From: a virus
DNA length: 44,016 nucleotides
Virus record (IMG/VR): IMGVR_UViG_3300049927_000035
Coordinates: 1-44,016 of that record
Strand: one strand, 5' to 3'
Shown here: positions 3,128 through 43,291 of the stretch, piece by piece
Layout of the letters: each line of letters starts with the position of its first letter
Position numbering within the stretch: the first letter of the stretch is position 1
Made by a program: the position numbers and the translations under genes
Notes under the pieces: generated by a model
What the model was told of the DNA's origin: nothing
The model's database searches: none
The model's input: the letters and a program-made list of their open reading frames with translations, nothing else

Positions 3128-4047
3128 GCGGCGCGTTCCGTTTCTCGTAGGCGTTTGATGCGGTGGGTGATATCGGTGCGGCCTTGTCGGCGGCAGAACG
3201 TGTCGAGGGAGTTGATGCTGTTGAAGCCAGTTCGTTTGAGGATTTCGGCTTGGCCGCAGCCGGATTGGATGAGCCATTCGATTTCGTTGCACCGGTCTTC
3301 GCCGTGGATGAGTGGGGTTTCTTCGAAGACGTTCGGCTGGGCTGCGTGGTCGTCTATTGTTTCGTCGTCCCATGCGAGGGGTGGGTGCCAACCGTTTGTT
3401 CTGGCGTGGTTGCGGGCCCGGTTCGCGGAGATCCGGGTGCGGTGGTCGTTCCCGGTTTGTGGCCGGTTCCAGAGCTGGTCGTAGAGTGCCTGGACTTTGC
3501 GGGCTGTTTCGGCGTGCACGTTTTCGCCGTGGAGTGCTCTGCTGAAGTTTGGGCGGGACATGCCGAGTTGTTCGGCGATGCGAGATTGTGACCATCCGAT
3601 TGCTACGAGTGCTTGGATGCGGCGGCGGGTTCCTGCGGCGTTGACGGTGGTCTTTTGGCCGAGGTGGCGGAGTTCGGGTTGGATGGCTTGGATGGCTTCG
3701 GCTATGTGTTTGTCGACGCGGGCGCGGGGTTTGATGTTGAGTGTTGGGGAGCCGTAGATGATTCTCATGACGGTGGCTTTTGAGATGCCCGCGAGGGTGG
3801 CTGTGCGGTCCATGCCGATGCCGTAGTTGGCGAGTGTTTGGATGTGTTCGCGGACGGGTTGGGCGTCTACGCGGCCGGTGTCGTAGCGTCCGTAGGCGAT
3901 TTGTCGGTTGCGCTGGTCTTCGGCTTTCGCTGATGCTGCGGTGCAGTCATGGCACCGGCATCTGTCGCGGATGTAGGCGAGTTGTGTGCCGTGTTCGTGG
4001 CGGGCTTGTTTGTGTTCGCAGTCGCGTTTGACTCTGGGCGCGCTCAT
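3124..4047 (-). CDS. Multi-HTH DNA-binding protein with N-terminal Cys cluster
   Basis: 307 residues. The N-terminus has Cys at 10, 30, 32 and 35 (the last three in RCRCHDC), suggesting a metal site. It is followed by a classic helix-turn-helix, DRTATLAGISKATVMRII (about 80-97). A second HTH (WSQSRIAEQLGMSRPNFSRAL) and a third HTH-like segment (GCGQAEILKRTGFNSINSL) lie in the C-terminal half. This architecture recurs in actinophages as an uncharacterised HTH protein. It is translationally coupled on both sides (ATGA at 4044 and at 3124), so it is made together with the methyltransferases. A regulator or DNA-organising role is inferred only from the HTH elements; no target site can be named. 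Confidence 0.82.
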   Translation of the reverse strand: MSAPRVKRDCEHKQARHEHGTQLAYIRDRCRCHDCTAASAKAEDQRNRQIAYGRYDTGRVDAQPVREHIQTLANYGIGMDRTATLAGISKATVMRIIYGSPTLNIKPRARVDKHIAEAIQAIQPELRHLGQKTTVNAAGTRRRIQALVAIGWSQSRIAEQLGMSRPNFSRALHGENVHAETARKVQALYDQLWNRPQTGNDHRTRISANRARNHARTNGWHPPLAWDDETIDDHAAQPNVFEETPLIHGEDRCNEIEWLIQSGCGQAEILKRTGFNSINSLDTFCRRQGRTDITHRIKRLRETERAA

Positions 4048-4514
4048 GCCGCCCGACTCTCCGCGCCCCGTTGCCCGGCGAGCTCCGCGATGAGATCCGG
4101 CTGCCAGCCTTCCCATGAGGCAACCAATCGCCCGTGGCTGGTGATGGTGACGACGGGCCACTGGTGGTATCCGAGGCCGTCCGTGACGTAGTGGTGGGCT
4201 GTCGGGTCTTCGTCCATGGCGGATTCGGTGACGGGGTAGCCTGCCTGGTTGATGGCGGCTTTGGTGGGGTTGCCGTGGAGGTTGGTGCGGAGGTCGTGGA
4301 GGGTGATTTCGAATGCGAGGCGTGGCCGGGTGGCGCCGTTGCGGAATTGGCCCATGGGCCGGTAGGAGAGGACGAGTCTGCAGTCGTCGCAGGCTGCGGG
4401 TGATTCGTTTTCGCGGACGATGATGCCGCAGCGGGCGCATTCGCGTTCCGGTTCGGATCTGGCTGCGAGGGGTGCGGTGGCGCGGACGCCCTGCGACGTG
4501 CGGTAGTGGATCAT
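4044..4514 (-). CDS. Zinc-ribbon protein fused to a glutaredoxin-like domain lacking CxxC
   Basis: 156 residues. Cys 26, 29, 42 and 45 form a CxxC...CxxC zinc ribbon. Residues about 67-145 align without gaps over the first part to the NrdH glutaredoxin encoded immediately upstream: shared IT, TK, LGY-x-Q-x-PVV and W-x-G-x-x-P positions have nearly identical spacing (LGYHQWPVV at 114-122 against LGYQQAPVV at 47-55 in NrdH). The active-site cysteines are gone: the positions equivalent to NrdH C12 and C15 are N78 and G81. The domain therefore probably keeps the fold but not redox activity. It looks like a duplicated nrdH fused to a ribbon and reused for binding. ATGA overlaps couple it to both neighbours. 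Confidence 0.78.
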   Translation of the reverse strand: MIHYRTSQGVRATAPLAARSEPERECARCGIIVRENESPAACDDCRLVLSYRPMGQFRNGATRPRLAFEITLHDLRTNLHGNPTKAAINQAGYPVTESAMDEDPTAHHYVTDGLGYHQWPVVTITSHGRLVASWEGWQPDLIAELAGQRGAESRAA

Positions 4515-4765
4515 GCTGCAGCCTCGACGTAGCGTCCGAGGCTGATCGGGTCGAACCCTGACCAGTGCAGGTCCGTTTCAGGGTCGCCGCTGGACACGAT
4601 CACGACGGGCGCTTGCTGGTATCCGAGGTATTTAATGGCGGCCAAGTCGTCAGGACTTTGTGACACGTCCACGGTGCGGTATTCGATGCCACGCTTATCC
4701 AGCCACCGCTTCGTCGCTCTGCATGGCTGGCAGTGAGGCTGGGTGTAGACGGTGATGATGCTCAT
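4511..4765 (-). CDS. nrdH: NrdH-type glutaredoxin
   Basis: 84 residues, the normal length for NrdH redoxins. The N-terminal strand leads into the redox motif CQPC (C12-C15), followed by LGYQQAPVVIV, in which the cis-Pro lies, and WSGFDP, a conserved NrdH C-terminal signature. NrdH normally donates electrons to class Ib ribonucleotide reductase (NrdEF). No reductase gene is visible here, so the protein presumably supports the host enzyme to raise dNTP supply during infection. It is coupled to the flanking genes by ATGA overlaps. The identification is firm; the partner enzyme is inferred. Confidence 0.93.
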   Translation of the reverse strand: MSIITVYTQPHCQPCRATKRWLDKRGIEYRTVDVSQSPDDLAAIKYLGYQQAPVVIVSSGDPETDLHWSGFDPISLGRYVEAAA

Positions 4766-4980
4766 GCTTTTACCTTGATTCCGTGTTGTGCGATGACTTC
4801 GTCGGGGATGAACCTGGCCTTGTTGATGCCGTTCTCGTGGCGGTACTTATCCATGGCTGCGGCGGCTGCGTTTTTGCAGGGCCGGCAGGTCTGGGTTTTG
4901 TTGGACAGGTGCCGGTAGTAGGCGGATCGGGTGCCGCAGTTGGGGTAGATGGACGGTCCGTCTGGTGTTTTCCGTGGCAT
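4762..4980 (-). CDS. Small Cys-containing phage protein
   Basis: 72 residues; ATG at 4980 overlaps the upstream stop as TGATG. The sequence has NCGTRSAYYRHL followed by TCRPCKNA, so Cys 15, 32 and 35 plus nearby His form a likely zinc site. The pattern CGT-x-Y-x-H...C-x-x-C-x-x-A recurs in actinophage microproteins of unknown role, often compared with WhiB-like or zinc-finger proteins. The C-terminal part is basic and helical-looking. An ATGA overlap couples it to nrdH. Function unknown; a nucleic-acid-binding role is only a guess. Confidence 0.7.
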   Translation of the reverse strand: MPRKTPDGPSIYPNCGTRSAYYRHLSNKTQTCRPCKNAAAAAMDKYRHENGINKARFIPDEVIAQHGIKVKA

Positions 4981-5288
4981 CAGGCGTCCAGCTCCACATC
5001 TAGGGCTTTCGCGAGGGCCACAATGTGATCTTTTTCCCAGCCCGATCTGCCTTCGGGGTGCAGCCAGAACCATTGCCCGATGTGCGTCTTGGACGGCATG
5101 ACGATCCCGCGCTTACCCTTCGCGGACCAGACGTGCGCGAGGGCTTCGTCGTATGTGTCGAAGGACCGCTTACCCTCAGGCTTGTATGCGAACCGCGGCG
5201 GGGTTGCCTTCCACTTCCGCACGCCGGTGACCATGTCCGTGGAGGATTCGATGCGCCACTTGCCGTGGTGGGGTCTGTGCTTGCTCAT
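4980..5288 (-). CDS. Hypothetical basic protein, 102 aa
   Basis: The start at 5288 overlaps the stop of the kinase-phosphatase gene (TGATG). The first 45 residues are rich in Lys, Arg and Trp (HHGKWRIE, RKWKATPPRF). The middle has FDTYDEALAHVW, an amphipathic helix-like segment. The end has WFWLHPEGRSGWEKDHIVAL. No recognised catalytic motif, signal peptide or membrane segment is seen. Placement directly after the RNA-repair pair and before the small zinc protein suggests co-expression but not a shared function. I do not recognise the family. Confidence 0.68.
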   Translation of the reverse strand: MSKHRPHHGKWRIESSTDMVTGVRKWKATPPRFAYKPEGKRSFDTYDEALAHVWSAKGKRGIVMPSKTHIGQWFWLHPEGRSGWEKDHIVALAKALDVELDA

Positions 5289-6193
5289 CAGAAGTTCCCG
5301 TCCGCGACTTGGAACACGGTCAGGCCGATCGCACGCCACATGCGGACCACCTGATCCCGATCGTCCCAAACGCCAGCCACGTTGAACTTGCCGCGGATGT
5401 GCTCGTTGAACAGCTCGTGCTTCACGACAGCGTCTTTGCGCTTATCGCCGAGCGGGCGCATGTGCAGTTCGTCGGCTATGAGTCCCTGTCCTTTGAGCCA
5501 GTGCGCGGTCACGAAGCGGTGCTCGGCGTCGCGGCCGGTCATGTAGATGATGCGGTGGGTTTTCTGGAGCATCCGGATGATGCGCACGACGGGCCAGTTC
5601 GGCGTGTCAAGGTGCGCTTTGGAGCCGTCGTAAATGTCGCGGTCGCCCTTGATGGCCACGGTCCCGTCGATGTCCACGAGGTAGACGGAGTGCAGGCCGA
5701 TGGTGGGTTCCCATGGCTGCCATTCGGTGGTGGCTGGCGCGTCTGCGGTGGGGTGCGGGAGTGGGCCGCTGGCGATGTATTTGGCGTGCATGGTTTCGAT
5801 GACACTGGACGGGATGCGGGACTCGGCGGGGCGTGCCTCGTTGCGTGCCACGCACGTTTCGAATGGCACATCCGTAAAGTCCTTCACGACGAGCTCCGCA
5901 CCGGTGATGGATGCGATGGTTGCCCAGTTGCGAGCGGTGCGCTGGCGAAGGTTCGTGTCATCCACAACGACGTCGAGGCCGTTGCGTAGGAACGCCCGGA
6001 CAAGGTCCGCCCCGGTCTTGGTGATGACGTTCTCGGTGTCTTGGGTGGCGGATTGGGCGTTGACGTGGATCATGCGGCGCAGTGAGTCGCGGTTGACACG
6101 TCTCCTGGTCGAGGGTGATTCTTGGACCCACTGTTCGGCCCATGTTGTCTTGCCGGATCCGGGCAGACCTCGGGTTATAACGAGCTCAGACAT
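5288..6193 (-). CDS. Polynucleotide 5'-kinase / 3'-phosphatase (T4 Pnkp-like)
   Basis: 301 residues, the same length as T4 Pnkp. The N-terminal kinase domain has the P-loop GLPGSGKTT at 9-17 and a VNRD segment ending in D36, placed like the catalytic Asp of Pnkp. The C-terminal HAD phosphatase has YLVDIDGTV with nucleophile D174 and acid/base D176, then IIYMTGRD. The enzyme would heal RNA breaks by phosphorylating 5'-OH and removing 3'-phosphate ends, ready for ligation. It overlaps the upstream RNA ligase gene by 8 nt, so the two form one repair cassette. The start at 6193 puts the P-loop near the N-terminus, as in the family; a longer upstream reading is Arg/Ser-rich shadow. Confident. Confidence 0.92.
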   Translation of the reverse strand: MSELVITRGLPGSGKTTWAEQWVQESPSTRRRVNRDSLRRMIHVNAQSATQDTENVITKTGADLVRAFLRNGLDVVVDDTNLRQRTARNWATIASITGAELVVKDFTDVPFETCVARNEARPAESRIPSSVIETMHAKYIASGPLPHPTADAPATTEWQPWEPTIGLHSVYLVDIDGTVAIKGDRDIYDGSKAHLDTPNWPVVRIIRMLQKTHRIIYMTGRDAEHRFVTAHWLKGQGLIADELHMRPLGDKRKDAVVKHELFNEHIRGKFNVAGVWDDRDQVVRMWRAIGLTVFQVADGNF

Positions 6194-7250
6194 TTGCGGT
6201 CTCCTTCGTGAAGGTGGGGCGGATCTGCTTCCACGCCCACTCGCTGATGTCACGGCCGTCGAGTAGCTGGAACAGGGCGGGGCGCGTCTCTGGGTAGAGC
6301 GCTGTTGCCTGCGCGTATTCGCGGCGTTCGAATCCTTCGGGGAGGGTTTCGAGGATGCCGTGGTGAACGGCGTGCGCTGCGCCGATGTAACCGTCGAACT
6401 TGTCATTCAAGTCCTCGGCGATACCCATGGCCCATGCGTGGAACTCGTCAGGGACGCCCGCGAGCAAGGTCTCGTAGTCCTTACCGGTGGCGAGCATTTC
6501 CCAGATGGTGCGTTCGTTCCATCCGGTGACGATCTTGTGCAGCGCAACGTAGTCGTCCTGCTTGATCTTGATGCGCACGTCACTGTCGCGGAAGTGCACG
6601 ACGTAGCCTTCGGCGTTCTTGCGCGGCGGCGCGGCGAGGGCTTCGGCGAACGTGTTGAACGGGTAGATTTCCGCTGCCTGACCATCCCACGGGATATCCC
6701 GTGGCGTGAACGTTTCGCCGGTTGCAATGTCCACCCCGCCAAGCAGGATCAGGTCTTCTACGGGGCCATAGTCCAGGACGATGCGGTTCTCGGGAAAAAT
6801 GATTTCGAAGAGGACCGTGACGCCTGCCGGTGGCCGCCAGTTAGGATACTGCTTGCAGAGGATCTGCTCAGCCTTCGCGGCTTGCGTGCTGGTGAAGGAT
6901 CCGCGGGTGGCGATGCTTGGGTGGCCGAGTCCGTCGAGGTAGACGATGCCGAGGGAGCCGTCGAGCTTGTCAGTGACGGTGACAGGTTCGTCAAGGTTGA
7001 AGGCGGGGTGGTGGTCTTCGGAGTGGTTGAAGAACTTCGGGAACGGGCGGGCGACAACCTCAAGGGTTTCGCTGTTGTAGATGAGCCCGCGGCATGCCCG
7101 GGTGACGTCAGTCCATTCGCGCTTGTACTGCGCGAGTTCGGTGTAGTTCAGGATGCGGAGCGGCAAGCTCGGGTGGGTTTGGGTGCGGATGAAGCCGTCA
7201 GCGATGGCCTGGGCGAGCGCTTCGGCGGTGAAGAGGTCAGTGATTCTCAT
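6186..7250 (-). CDS. RNA ligase (T4 Rnl1-like)
   Basis: 354 residues, close to T4 Rnl1 (374). Motif I is TDKLDGSLG with the AMP-accepting lysine at K95. An EIIF-containing strand (motif III), EGYVVHF (motif IV) and RIKIKQDDY (motif V) complete the nucleotidyltransferase core, and a helical C-terminal domain follows. It would join 5'-phosphate and 3'-OH RNA ends prepared by the neighbouring kinase-phosphatase. In T4 the same pair reseals host tRNA cut by anticodon nucleases as an antiviral response. The ATG at 7250 overlaps the SSB stop (TGATG). The family call is firm; the natural substrate is inferred. Confidence 0.92.
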   Translation of the reverse strand: MRITDLFTAEALAQAIADGFIRTQTHPSLPLRILNYTELAQYKREWTDVTRACRGLIYNSETLEVVARPFPKFFNHSEDHHPAFNLDEPVTVTDKLDGSLGIVYLDGLGHPSIATRGSFTSTQAAKAEQILCKQYPNWRPPAGVTVLFEIIFPENRIVLDYGPVEDLILLGGVDIATGETFTPRDIPWDGQAAEIYPFNTFAEALAAPPRKNAEGYVVHFRDSDVRIKIKQDDYVALHKIVTGWNERTIWEMLATGKDYETLLAGVPDEFHAWAMGIAEDLNDKFDGYIGAAHAVHHGILETLPEGFERREYAQATALYPETRPALFQLLDGRDISEWAWKQIRPTFTKETANV

Positions 7251-36397: not shown

Positions 36398-36784
36398 TCA
36401 GCTTTCGAGGTTGGGGGAGGGTTTGCGGCGCTTCGCTGTGCCCTGGGGGGACAGCCCGGTGATGTCGCCGGATTCGTAGAGCGCCCACGCGGTTTCGTCT
36501 AGGACGGTGCCCAGAAGCCAGTCGCCGGACTTCACAATCACGCCGTCTCCCAGATCCCAGTTCGGGCCGCGGTAGATGTAGCTTTCTACGACATCCGCGT
36601 GCCCTTCGGTGCCGTTCTCGTGGAACAGGCCGATGGACCGGGAGGACTTGTTGAACTCCCAAGCCGCCTTCTCGAGCTCCGCGGGGGTGAAGAAGTCGCG
36701 TGAACCATCCGCGCCGGTCGCGATCCTGGGATCGGGGCCGGCCTGGTAGGCGATGGAGAGCAGGTAGCGTTGCGGCTCACTCAC
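36398..36784 (-). CDS. XkdF-like prohead protease
   Basis: 128 residues from a GTG in a GTGA overlap with the portal stop. The sequence TPAELEKAAWEF, SIGLFHENGTEGHADVVESY, GVIVKSGDWLLGTVLDETAW and the ALYESGDITGLSPQGTAKRR ending match the XkdF-type putative serine protease family, with GLSPQG probably carrying the active serine. Such proteases cleave scaffold and sometimes portal or MuF partners during maturation. Shorter than the fused forms; the expected C-terminal portion (DLVGKAANGHRF) begins the next gene. Good family match. Confidence 0.8.
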   Translation of the reverse strand: MSEPQRYLLSIAYQAGPDPRIATGADGSRDFFTPAELEKAAWEFNKSSRSIGLFHENGTEGHADVVESYIYRGPNWDLGDGVIVKSGDWLLGTVLDETAWALYESGDITGLSPQGTAKRRKPSPNLES

Positions 36785-39771
36785 AGGGCGTGTCCTTCGA
36801 TGTAGGGTGCGGCTGCGCAACGGCAGTACGGGTGTGCGGGGATGAGTGATTCGCCGACGGGGAAGTGCAGCCCGTCTTTCGGGGAGCACACCTCAGGGCA
36901 AGCCCCGGCAGAGGTGACCCATGTCCACTGGGCGACGCCGAGCGCCTGGTATTGGGCCATGGCAGCGTCGGTGAGCATGCGTGCGGTCTCGGTCTGGGCG
37001 ATCATGAGGGACCGCACCGGATCGTCCAGCACATCGTTCAGTGCCCGGCCGATGACGTCGGACGGGTCGCCAGCGTTCACGCCGTCAGCGATCTTGTACG
37101 CGAGCCGGTTCACGGTCGTGTCGGTGATTTCCTTGAGCGTGATGCCCGCGTTTTGCAGGGCTTCTTTCCAACCGAGGGCGGTGATCTGGTTCGCGTCGGT
37201 CATGCCCGGCGTCCACGTCCCCCAGTTCGGGGGCGTGTCGCCCATCTGCACCTTCGCGGCCATGATGCCCGAGTGGTACGCGTCAGCCCATGCGTTCGTG
37301 ATGACCTGCTCGAGCGTGGACGGCTGCACCGAACCGGACAGGACACGCCTGGCGACGTCACGGAACACGCCGAGCGCAACGTCACCCACACCCTCGGTTG
37401 ATGTGATCGCGGCCTGTAGGTCGCTTTCACGCCACAGCTGGGTCATGGACTCCTGGATCCTTGGTGACCAGTAGTCGGTCAGGGCAAGGTCCACCAAGTG
37501 CTGCGGCTGGGCGTTCGGGGGTGCGTCACGCCATTTAGGCGTACCAGCTTTTGGGCCAGCATCAGTCCCGACGTGATCATCCTTGGCCAGTTGCGCACGG
37601 GCCGTATCGTTCAGGTGCTTCGCGACAGGTGCCGGGATGGCATCGAATTCGAAGTCACGCCACGTGCCACGCTTTGCACGGGCCTTCGTGAACGCCTGGA
37701 ACTTCGCCAACTCCTTGGCGGTTGCCTTGGCGAGCTCCTCAGCGGGCAGGTTGTCGGCGAGTTCCTCACGCAATGCGGGGAATCCGTCGAGGTGGTCCGG
37801 GTCGAACCATGCCAGCGTTTCGCCGTCTTCACCGTCTCCGGTGTTGATCGGGATGGACGCCTCAGAATCGATCTTGAACACGTGCCCGGCGTAGTTGCCG
37901 TTCGCCCACGAGCCGACAAGGTTGGCGTCTGCCGGGAAGTCAAGCCCGGTTTCTTCCTCCCATTCACGGATCGCCGCGTCCTGCGCGGTTTCGCCAGCGT
38001 CAAGATGCCCGCCGGGGAACTCCCAACGGCCTGCGGCTGGGTCCTCGGGGTCGAGGTAGCGCTGGATCATCAGCACCCGGCCGGTGTCCTTGGCCTTCAC
38101 TGCTGCCCCGGCAACCTTGACGTCGGACTTCTCGAGCTCGTCAGGTTTGACCTGATCCACGCCCGTGATTCCGGTGGCCGAGGTGACGCCGGCCGTGAGT
38201 TCCTTCGCAACCGTGGGTGACGGCTTGGCGATCGTGCCGGTGTCCTCGTGGACGTGCTCCAGTTCAGGGAAGCGCGGCTCGTCAGGATTGATCGGTGCCC
38301 GGTGGAACTCTGGCGAACCCGGGAGCTTGTCAGGCATCAGGCCCGGCGTCCCGGCGAACGGAACCTCCGGGAGCGGCTGGTCATCAGCCGGGGCCTTCGT
38401 TTCCGGGTCCACCTTGCCGGAAATGGCAAGCAGCGAAGCCAGCGGGACGAAGCCCTGGCGCGGCAGCACCAGGCCACGCGGGACCGGACGCTCATTATCG
38501 ACCGGCAACCCGAGGATCTGCTCGCGACCCTCGTCGGCCGATGCCATGCCGGATTCGATGTACAGCTTCCATGCCTGAGCTTCGGTGAGGCGGTCTTCCT
38601 TGTCGCGGCCGGTGTTCAGCTTCAACTGGACGGGCAGTCCGAGGTCGTGCTGCAGGTAGCGGGTGAGGATTGCCTCGACGAAGCGCACCCATGGGAGGGT
38701 GTTGACGCGGAACTGGGTGTCGGTCTGGGTTTCGCCCGTGGCACGGTTCACGTCATCGGTGAGCCCCAAGTCCTGCGGGACCACACCGAACGCGCCCGCA
38801 ACCTTGATGTCAAGGTATTTCGGGAAGTTCGGGTCGAACGCGATCGGGACCGTACCCGTGAACTTGGATCCGGTCGGCACGGCAATGAGCTTGTGCGTGA
38901 TGGACTGGTCGCCCATGAACGTCGCGTCCCAGTAGTCCTGCCACTCAGCCACCTGATCGGGTGACGTGACGTCCGGAGGCATCTCCATGAAGCCGCCGGG
39001 GATGGACCCCTCGGTGAACATCTGCAGGAGGTGCCACTGGAAGCGCATGTCCGTGTTGACGGTCAGCATGATCGATTCCAGCGGGGCCATGCCGTACGGG
39101 GAGTCTGTCTGCGGCCGGTAGCGGGTGTAGGTCAGGTCCTCGGCAGTGAAGTCCACGGACGCCTGACCGCGGATGATCTGCTGATACGCAGGGGCGGGTG
39201 CCTGGGGGCGGCGGCCGTGATCGTCGATCAGCGGGTAAATCGTTGCGCCGTCCACGATTTCAAGGCCGATGATCTGGCCGTCACGGTTACGGCGACGGTA
39301 CAGGGGGCCGGAGTCGAACGTGAGCATGTTTTCCAGCCACAGGGCCAGCCACTCATCCCATGAGTGCTCACGGTCGGGGAATGCCAGTGCGGCCCGTGCG
39401 GCGGATACTGCAGCTTCGCCGTCGCCCTTGAATCCATCCATGGGCGTCAGGAGCGGCTCCATGGAGCGCAGCTCGTCGATCTTGTGGTTCTTGCACATCT
39501 GCGCCGTACCGTAGGCGCGCATGAGTTCACGCAGCACGTCATAGGAGGTGCGCCCCCACGCCTGCCGGGAACGGGACGTGAGGTTGACGCCGACAGGGTA
39601 GTCATTGGCTCGCGGCCGCACACTGTACCCGCGGGACGGGGCGAGAGGCTGCCCTGGTCCCATGTCCGAGTTACCGGCCATGCCCTGCAGGGTGAGGGCG
39701 TCACTGATGGGCTGTGGGGTGGTGGCCCTTTTGAGCAGGCCGTCGCCACGGAAGAGATCCATGATTCCCAA
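36781..39771 (-). CDS. Portal-Nudix-MuF fusion protein
   Basis: 996 residues in one uninterrupted frame. Residues about 60-450 are the portal: RSYDVLRELM-type clip start, SPYGMAPLESIMLTVNTDMR, LGLTDDVNRATGE, TRYLQHDLGLPVQLK, with the usual crown. About 545-680 is a Nudix domain whose box fits exactly: G588 to L610 (GHLDAGETAQDAAIREWEEE then TGL). About 770-990 is a MuF-type minor head domain, with IAQTETARM and the Cys pairs C958/C962 and C983/C985 (HPYCRC). TTG 39771 fits a GGAAGG site; ATG three codons on is an alternative. Portal and MuF fusions are known, but a Nudix domain between them is very unusual. The dodecameric portal would put Nudix and MuF domains inside the head. Confidence 0.93.
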   Translation of the reverse strand: MGIMDLFRGDGLLKRATTPQPISDALTLQGMAGNSDMGPGQPLAPSRGYSVRPRANDYPVGVNLTSRSRQAWGRTSYDVLRELMRAYGTAQMCKNHKIDELRSMEPLLTPMDGFKGDGEAAVSAARAALAFPDREHSWDEWLALWLENMLTFDSGPLYRRRNRDGQIIGLEIVDGATIYPLIDDHGRRPQAPAPAYQQIIRGQASVDFTAEDLTYTRYRPQTDSPYGMAPLESIMLTVNTDMRFQWHLLQMFTEGSIPGGFMEMPPDVTSPDQVAEWQDYWDATFMGDQSITHKLIAVPTGSKFTGTVPIAFDPNFPKYLDIKVAGAFGVVPQDLGLTDDVNRATGETQTDTQFRVNTLPWVRFVEAILTRYLQHDLGLPVQLKLNTGRDKEDRLTEAQAWKLYIESGMASADEGREQILGLPVDNERPVPRGLVLPRQGFVPLASLLAISGKVDPETKAPADDQPLPEVPFAGTPGLMPDKLPGSPEFHRAPINPDEPRFPELEHVHEDTGTIAKPSPTVAKELTAGVTSATGITGVDQVKPDELEKSDVKVAGAAVKAKDTGRVLMIQRYLDPEDPAAGRWEFPGGHLDAGETAQDAAIREWEEETGLDFPADANLVGSWANGNYAGHVFKIDSEASIPINTGDGEDGETLAWFDPDHLDGFPALREELADNLPAEELAKATAKELAKFQAFTKARAKRGTWRDFEFDAIPAPVAKHLNDTARAQLAKDDHVGTDAGPKAGTPKWRDAPPNAQPQHLVDLALTDYWSPRIQESMTQLWRESDLQAAITSTEGVGDVALGVFRDVARRVLSGSVQPSTLEQVITNAWADAYHSGIMAAKVQMGDTPPNWGTWTPGMTDANQITALGWKEALQNAGITLKEITDTTVNRLAYKIADGVNAGDPSDVIGRALNDVLDDPVRSLMIAQTETARMLTDAAMAQYQALGVAQWTWVTSAGACPEVCSPKDGLHFPVGESLIPAHPYCRCAAAPYIEGHAL

Positions 39772-42961: not shown

Positions 42962-43291
42962 CTACGCCTTGTAACGGTCATCGAATGCTCGCTGTTCGTC
43001 CATGAAGGTCAGGAGCGCGAGGGCGTGGAACGCGACGGACGCCATGTGCGGCGAGCCCGTCTCTTCGTCAATGTCCTCACCTGACCAGAACGCGTTGGCG
43101 TGGCGCTGCAGGGCCGCAAACGACTTCGACCACTCATAACCTTTTCTCCAGTTGTGCGCAGAGTACTTGAGCGCGCCGACACCGTAGTGGCGGGCAACGG
43201 CGGCGAGGGCTTCCTGTGGGAGCAGGTCGAACCGTTCGGGCTTGGTGCCCTTCTCGGCCCCGGTGCTACTGACGGAGCGGACCTCAGTCAT
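42962..43291 (-). CDS. dATP/dGTP diphosphohydrolase-like (DUF5664) protein
   Basis: 109 residues. The pattern KPERFDLLPQEALAAVARHY, then GALKYSAHNWRKGYEWSKSF, then LQRHANAFWSGEDIDEETGS and HMASVAFHALALLTF matches the phage family annotated as dATP/dGTP diphosphohydrolase or DUF5664, an all-helical MazG-like fold in which Glu/Asp and His bind metal. It would hydrolyse purine dNTPs or related nucleotides to shape precursor pools. The ATG at 43291 overlaps the preceding stop as ATGA. Reaction inferred from the family. Confidence 0.75.
   Translation of the reverse strand: MTEVRSVSSTGAEKGTKPERFDLLPQEALAAVARHYGVGALKYSAHNWRKGYEWSKSFAALQRHANAFWSGEDIDEETGSPHMASVAFHALALLTFMDEQRAFDDRYKA

What the first reader, a model, noticed from the sequence alone, without database searches (positions are those of the whole stretch)
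4044..4765. Dead glutaredoxin fused to a zinc ribbon, next to an intact nrdH
The 4044-4514 protein aligns without gaps to the neighbouring NrdH around the active site (IT, TK, LGY-x-Q-x-PVV, W-x-G positions), but the catalytic C12/C15 of NrdH are N78 and G81, and a four-Cys zinc ribbon precedes the domain. This looks like a tandem duplication followed by loss of redox chemistry and gain of a metal-binding module: an NrdH fold probably reused for binding, perhaps of ribonucleotide reductase or host RNA polymerase.
Basis: seen in the sequence. Interest (0 to 1): 0.65.

Follow-up and report, generated by a model that had tools for sequence, protein, structure and literature searches.

The report
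Cysteine-free NrdH domain behind zinc-ribbon motif
An actinophage carries, directly behind a normal copy of the small redox protein NrdH, a second gene whose NrdH-like domain has lost all its reactive cysteines and is joined to a four-cysteine, probably zinc-binding segment; the old enzyme fold has probably been kept as a binding module, but so far this is a single example with no tested function.

Summary
The sequence observation is right. Minus-strand ORF 4514-4044 (156 aa) has four cysteines only, C26/C29/C42/C45 (CX2C-X12-CX2C), and a C-terminal NrdH domain with N78/G81 where NrdH has its two cysteines. Homology to NrdH is firm: an NrdH HMM gives E 4e-12 against a best of 1.3 in 1,500 shuffles, TIGR02194 gives 2e-5, and the best PDB sequence and Foldseek hits are all NrdH. 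The gene is real coding sequence, with ATGA overlaps to nrdH upstream and to an HTH gene downstream. Loss is focal: 0 of 4 highly conserved active-site-block positions are kept against 12 of 16 elsewhere. The 'tandem duplication' is not supported: by alignment score the neighbouring NrdH ranks 100th of 105 NrdHs, and the domain is nearer to other Arthrobacter-phage and Micrococcaceae NrdHs; the tree is unresolved. No second redox-dead relative was found in phages, plasmids, IMG/VR, GTDB contigs or 398 related genomes, and no NrdH inspected had lost CXXC. Best reading: a redox-dead NrdH pseudoenzyme/adaptor made together with active NrdH. Its target is unknown. New variant of a known kind; single case.

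The parts
4044..4514 (-). Redox-dead NrdH-like protein, 156 aa, ATG start to TGA stop
   Evidence: ORF; codon-usage score 0.36 in this frame, negative in the other five; TIGR02194 E 2e-5
4380..4439 (-). Four-Cys segment, C26-X2-C29-X12-C42-X2-C45, probable zinc ribbon
   Evidence: Sequence; weak DUF7129 and rubrerythrin-like matches; model strands 23-25 and 32-34, pLDDT about 70
4065..4316 (-). NrdH/thioredoxin-fold domain, residues 67-150, no cysteine (N78 and G81 at the CXXC positions)
   Evidence: hmmsearch E 4e-12; AF2 pLDDT 89-97 with NrdH alignment; Foldseek top four PDB hits NrdH
4511..4765 (-). Intact NrdH glutaredoxin, CQPC active site
   Evidence: PF00462 2e-13; TIGR02194 1e-20, 73.4 bits, below its 85.75 cut-off; PDB NrdH 6e-15
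4511..4514 (-). ATGA overlap of nrdH stop and dead-NrdH start (translational coupling likely)
   Evidence: Sequence
4044..4047 (-). ATGA overlap of dead-NrdH stop and HTH gene start
   Evidence: Sequence; HTH start matches relatives L289-L291
3124..4047 (-). HTH protein of family phrog_1590, downstream gene
   Evidence: PHROG E 3e-60

Best explanation
The gene makes a redox-dead NrdH pseudoenzyme. Shown by sequence: the C-terminal domain is homologous to NrdH, has lost both active-site cysteines and the conserved Tyr and Pro of the active-site loop, and keeps the LGY-x-Q-x-P cis-Pro loop and the W-x-G-x-x-P motif. Inferred: it keeps the surface by which NrdH meets its partners, cannot exchange disulfides, and so binds non-covalently as an adaptor or competitor for a partner of NrdH (host thioredoxin reductase, ribonucleotide reductase, or another client). 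The N-terminal four-Cys segment probably binds zinc and supplies a second contact. The ATGA overlap suggests that it is made together with active NrdH.
For: Homology; NrdH fold (with the caveat that the alignment was NrdH); no Cys in the domain; focal loss, active-site block 0/4 kept versus 12/16 elsewhere, Fisher p 0.014; coding signal in both halves, 0.31 and 0.40; ATGA overlaps on both sides. Precedents: thioredoxin's redox capacity is not needed in T7 DNA polymerase (PMC3997047); ERp27 is a non-catalytic PDI relative that interacts with ERp57 (reference title in PMC2757866).
Against: No second redox-dead homolog was found, so conservation of the protein cannot be shown. The tree branch is very long (2.6 changes per column), which drift would also give. 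Zinc binding, partner and expression are untested. Some fold positions are altered too (D99A, A119W, F137W in NrdH terms).
Confidence: 0.45

Rival explanations
1. Decaying remnant: an old nrdH made redundant by the second, active nrdH is drifting and is still open by chance; the upstream four-Cys stretch is incidental or left from another gene.
For: Singleton with a very long branch; loss of every active-site-block residue; an active NrdH lies beside it.
Against: 156 codons without a stop, codon-usage score above that of nrdH itself, ATGA overlaps on both sides; 12 of 16 strongly conserved fold positions kept; regular four-Cys spacing.
Confidence: 0.22
2. Non-redox scaffold of the phage replication/recombination machinery, as thioredoxin is for T7 DNA polymerase, with the zinc ribbon contacting nucleic acid or a replication protein.
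For: Neighbours are SSB, RecT, YqaJ recombinase, C5 methylase, helicase, polynucleotide kinase and RNA ligase; redox-independent T7 precedent (PMC3997047).
Against: Such neighbours are usual around phage nrdH and say little; no sequence sign of a specific partner.
Confidence: 0.17
3. Redox role moved to the N-terminal cysteines: the four-Cys segment is a thiol/zinc switch whose cysteines are kept reduced by the coupled active NrdH, and the dead domain is a docking handle.
For: Small Cys-rich proteins recur directly behind phage nrdH: a PCCxLC family in L006, L007, L012, L017, L098 and L316; Kukla gp57, a 43-aa CxxC...CxxC ORF between nrdH and the same HTH gene.
Against: No sequence similarity shown between those proteins and this one; structural zinc is the commoner role of such knuckles; thioredoxin-2 has a zinc knuckle together with an active CXXC (PMC8615215).
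Confidence: 0.1
4. Direct tandem duplicate of the adjacent nrdH that lost its cysteines.
For: Adjacency; the tree test does not reject the pair as sisters (p-AU 0.31).
Against: Neighbour ranks 100 of 105 NrdHs in similarity, its whole clade 96-105; YVTDGLGY carries an extra residue shared with the DPTA...YVT...LGY-type NrdHs and lacking in the neighbour.
Confidence: 0.06

Closest known systems
NrdH-redoxin (TIGR02194; PDB 4fiw, 1h75, 4hs1)
   Same: Homologous domain, same predicted fold, LGYxQxPVV and WxGxxP motifs kept
   Different: No CXXC, active-site Tyr and Pro also lost, score far below the family cut-off (24.7 versus 85.75 bits), extra N-terminal four-Cys module
Thioredoxin-2 (TrxC type, e.g. 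Deinococcus radiodurans DrTrx2)
   Same: Architecture: two CXXC motifs forming an N-terminal zinc module ahead of a thioredoxin-fold domain (PMC8615215)
   Different: Trx2 keeps its WCGPC active site; here the fold domain is of NrdH type and has no cysteine; no sequence relation of the zinc modules was tested
Class II glutaredoxins (redox-inactive)
   Same: Glutaredoxin-like fold with little or no oxidoreductase activity (PMC7138851)
   Different: Class II proteins keep an active-site Cys for Fe-S binding; none here
E. coli thioredoxin in T7 DNA polymerase
   Same: Works like: thioredoxin fold used as a binding module, redox not needed (PMC3997047)
   Different: Host protein with intact CXXC; no evidence that this protein binds a polymerase

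Membership tests
NrdH-redoxin | Homology over the domain | tested here: met
   hmmsearch E 4e-12 versus best shuffle 1.3; TIGR02194 E 2e-5
NrdH-redoxin | C-x-x-C redox active site | tested here: not met
   N78-L-H-G81; no Cys in residues 46-156
NrdH-redoxin | Score above the curated TIGR02194 cut-off | tested here: not met
   24.7 bits against 85.75; note that the neighbouring intact NrdH also falls short, 73.4
NrdH-redoxin | C-terminal W-S-G-F-x-P motif | tested here: met
   W134-E-G136-W-Q-P139: W, G and P kept, S and F replaced
NrdH-redoxin | Thioredoxin/glutaredoxin fold | tested here: met
   AF2 pLDDT 89-97 over 68-150 and Foldseek top hits NrdH; the alignment was NrdH, and the single-sequence model was poor, pLDDT 46.6, with no significant Foldseek match
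NrdH-redoxin | Reduces class Ib ribonucleotide reductase | not testable with these tools
   Needs biochemistry; predicted negative for lack of cysteines
Thioredoxin-2 architecture | N-terminal two-CXXC zinc module ahead of the fold domain | tested here: inconclusive
   CX2C-X12-CX2C present; zinc binding not shown
Thioredoxin-2 architecture | WCGPC active site | tested here: not met
   Absent
Class II glutaredoxin | One active-site Cys for Fe-S/GSH ligation | tested here: not met
   No Cys in the domain
Zinc ribbon | Curated family match to the four-Cys segment | tested here: not met
   DUF7129 17.1 bits (cut-off 30), rubre_like_arch 17.1 (cut-off 32)

The most novel reading that the evidence does not exclude
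Actinophage nrdH genes often serve, besides or instead of ribonucleotide reductase, small Cys-rich zinc proteins encoded and coupled directly behind them; in this phage that Cys-rich protein has captured a redox-dead NrdH domain as its docking handle or off-switch, making an NrdH / dead-NrdH regulatory pair.
Probability: 0.1. Interest if true: 0.65.

Novelty: new variant of a known kind. Interest (0 to 1): 0.42.

Why it matters
No NrdH examined here had lost its active-site cysteines, so a cysteine-free NrdH domain fused to a metal-ligand-like segment and overlapping an active nrdH would be a clean natural case of a redox enzyme fold turned into a binding module in a phage. It is easy to test: both proteins are small and the predictions (zinc content, no reductase activity, binding to NrdH partners) are direct.

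Tried and rejected
L294 begins inside an NrdH-like gene whose active site is cut off, so it decides nothing. N-terminal module alone: only chance hits, E 5-8. Single-sequence AF2 gave a poor model with no significant PDB match. Tree and AU tests could not place the domain. My first CXXC filter was wrongly written; its printed sequences were read by eye and contain CXXC (mostly CVQC). Fe-S class II glutaredoxin rejected for lack of any Cys in the domain. A sequencing or frameshift artefact is unlikely, since both flanks of the active site stay in register.

Full report
Observation. The 156-aa ORF 4044-4514 has exactly four cysteines, 26, 29, 42 and 45, as CX2C-X12-CX2C. Setting T71 on T5 of the neighbouring NrdH gives an ungapped register through T84-K85, with C12 and C15 falling on N78 and G81. 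So the described features are there, at the stated places.

Is the gene real? Codon usage learned from 16 larger genes of the window scores +0.36 in this frame and below zero in all five others; nrdH itself scores 0.15. Both halves score positive (0.31 and 0.40). The start overlaps the nrdH stop as ATGA (4511-4514), and the stop overlaps the start of the next gene as ATGA (4044-4047). The next gene is an HTH protein of phrog_1590 whose start agrees with relatives.

Is it NrdH? A profile from about 100 NrdHs finds residues 67-156 at E 4e-12, while the best of 1,500 shuffles reaches 1.3. NCBIfam TIGR02194 matches at 2e-5, beginning at profile position 14, just behind the active site. phmmer against PDB returns five chains, all NrdH, E 0.0024 to 0.37. 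tblastn against phages gives 42 records, nearly all on genes annotated NrdH, glutaredoxin or thioredoxin; one record has no annotation and one names the gene a hypothetical protein. AlphaFold2 with an alignment of 43 rows gives pLDDT 89-97 over the domain, and the four best Foldseek PDB hits are NrdH structures. That alignment consisted of NrdHs, so the model confirms compatibility rather than giving an independent proof; the single-sequence model was poor, pLDDT 46.6, and found nothing significant.

What was lost and kept. Positions at least 90% conserved among NrdHs: in the active-site block (Y, P, C, C) none of four is kept; elsewhere 12 of 16 are, including L114, G115, Y116, Q118, cis-Pro P120, W134, G136 and P139 (Fisher p 0.014). 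The profile set was collected with a CXXC filter, so the 100% for cysteine is partly by construction. The translated NrdHs printed before that filter (24 from IMG/VR; host NrdHs read by eye, where my regular expression was faulty; six more) all carried CXXC, and the sequences dropped by the filter were wrong-frame fragments or had CXXC.

Origin. It is not: by local alignment score it is 100th of 105, and its clade mates L008, L009 and L011-L017 fill places 96-105 with it. Best are NrdHs from Micrococcaceae genomes (L124, L125) and Arthrobacter phages (L098, L006), which share D-P-x-A-x-x-Y-V/I-T-x-x-LGY or close variants of it, with one more residue than the neighbour. Sampling is biased, since many rows were fetched by similarity to the dead domain and the neighbour's clade by similarity to the neighbour. 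The tree cannot decide: end branch 2.6, sister pair not rejected (p-AU 0.31), membership in the Arthrobacter-phage clade not rejected either (p-AU 0.48). The fair statement is: NrdH-derived, source unknown, neighbour unlikely.

Distribution. Searches of phages, plasmids, IMG/VR, GTDB contigs and 398 genomes of one host family found no second redox-dead member. Phage records with a hit to the dead protein had one place each. So there is no comparative evidence for selection on this protein; what stands for function is the intact coding frame, the overlaps and the focal pattern of loss.

Context. The record is a 44-kb virus record classed among those that may be fragments; a SNF2-type helicase runs off its first base. 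It encodes an integrase, repressor-like HTH and IrrE-type peptidase, so it is probably temperate. No ribonucleotide reductase large or small subunit matched, but the record may be incomplete. NrdH may therefore act on the host enzyme (inference). Neighbours are SSB, RNA ligase, polynucleotide kinase/phosphatase, RecT, YqaJ, C5 methylase. The Arthrobacter phages that share DNA with the window suggest an Arthrobacter-like host (inference).

Mechanism. Thiol-disulfide exchange by the domain is excluded by the absence of cysteine (shown). That the kept cis-Pro loop and W-x-G-x-x-P surface still bind NrdH partners is inference. Zinc binding of the four-Cys segment is inference from spacing; family matches are below cut-offs. 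Thioredoxin-2 shows that a two-CXXC zinc module ahead of a thioredoxin fold exists (PMC8615215), and T7 polymerase shows that a thioredoxin fold can serve a phage without redox chemistry (PMC3997047). Adaptor or competitor for an NrdH partner is my first choice (0.45), then decay (0.22), replication scaffold (0.17), relocated thiol/zinc switch (0.10), with 0.06 left for simple tandem duplication as origin.

Side finding. In several actinophages the ORF directly behind nrdH encodes a small Cys-rich protein, PCCxLCxxxxGICLxRxxCxHHKxAD, and Kukla has a 43-aa CxxC...CxxC ORF between nrdH and the same HTH family. A crude count gave 11 of 39 viral nrdH loci (the window included) with a Cys-rich next ORF; no control for other genes was run, so it is a lead only. 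If real, the window's protein would be a member of that habit in which the Cys-rich protein is joined to a dead NrdH domain.

Noticed in passing
L006:3210-3443, L007:3210-3410, L012, L017, L098, L316 behind nrdH; L014:3246-3446; Seahorse gp80 in L002:9701-9928: Small Cys/His-rich protein family (PCCxLC...GICLxRxxCxHHKxAD...) encoded directly behind or near nrdH in Arthrobacter-type phages; EvePickles gp73 matched no PHROG. Crude count only, no control.
   Followed up: partly
L314:2146-2277 (Arthrobacter phage Kukla gp57): 43-aa ORF with CxxC...CxxC lying between an active nrdH and the same HTH family as in the window.
   Followed up: partly
L294:1-900: Contig starts inside an NrdH-like gene followed by a Cys-rich protein and an HTH relative; its active site is cut off, so it may or may not be redox-dead.
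   Followed up: partly
window 36781-39771 (-): Single 996-aa ORF matching phage portal, NUDIX hydrolase (E 2e-19) and, more weakly, Mu F-like domains: a portal-NUDIX-MuF fusion.
   Followed up: no
window 5288-7250 (-): Adjacent polynucleotide kinase/phosphatase and T4-type RNA ligase, an RNA-repair pair.
   Followed up: no
window 4762-4980 (-): 72-aa protein upstream of nrdH with CGT...YYRHL...CxxC pattern; matches the tail of a WhiB-like PHROG (phrog_12112, E 3e-9).
   Followed up: no
window 42962-43291 (-): N-terminal domain of dATP/dGTP diphosphohydrolase (PF18909, E 3e-35), a nucleotide-pool gene without RNR genes in the record.
   Followed up: no
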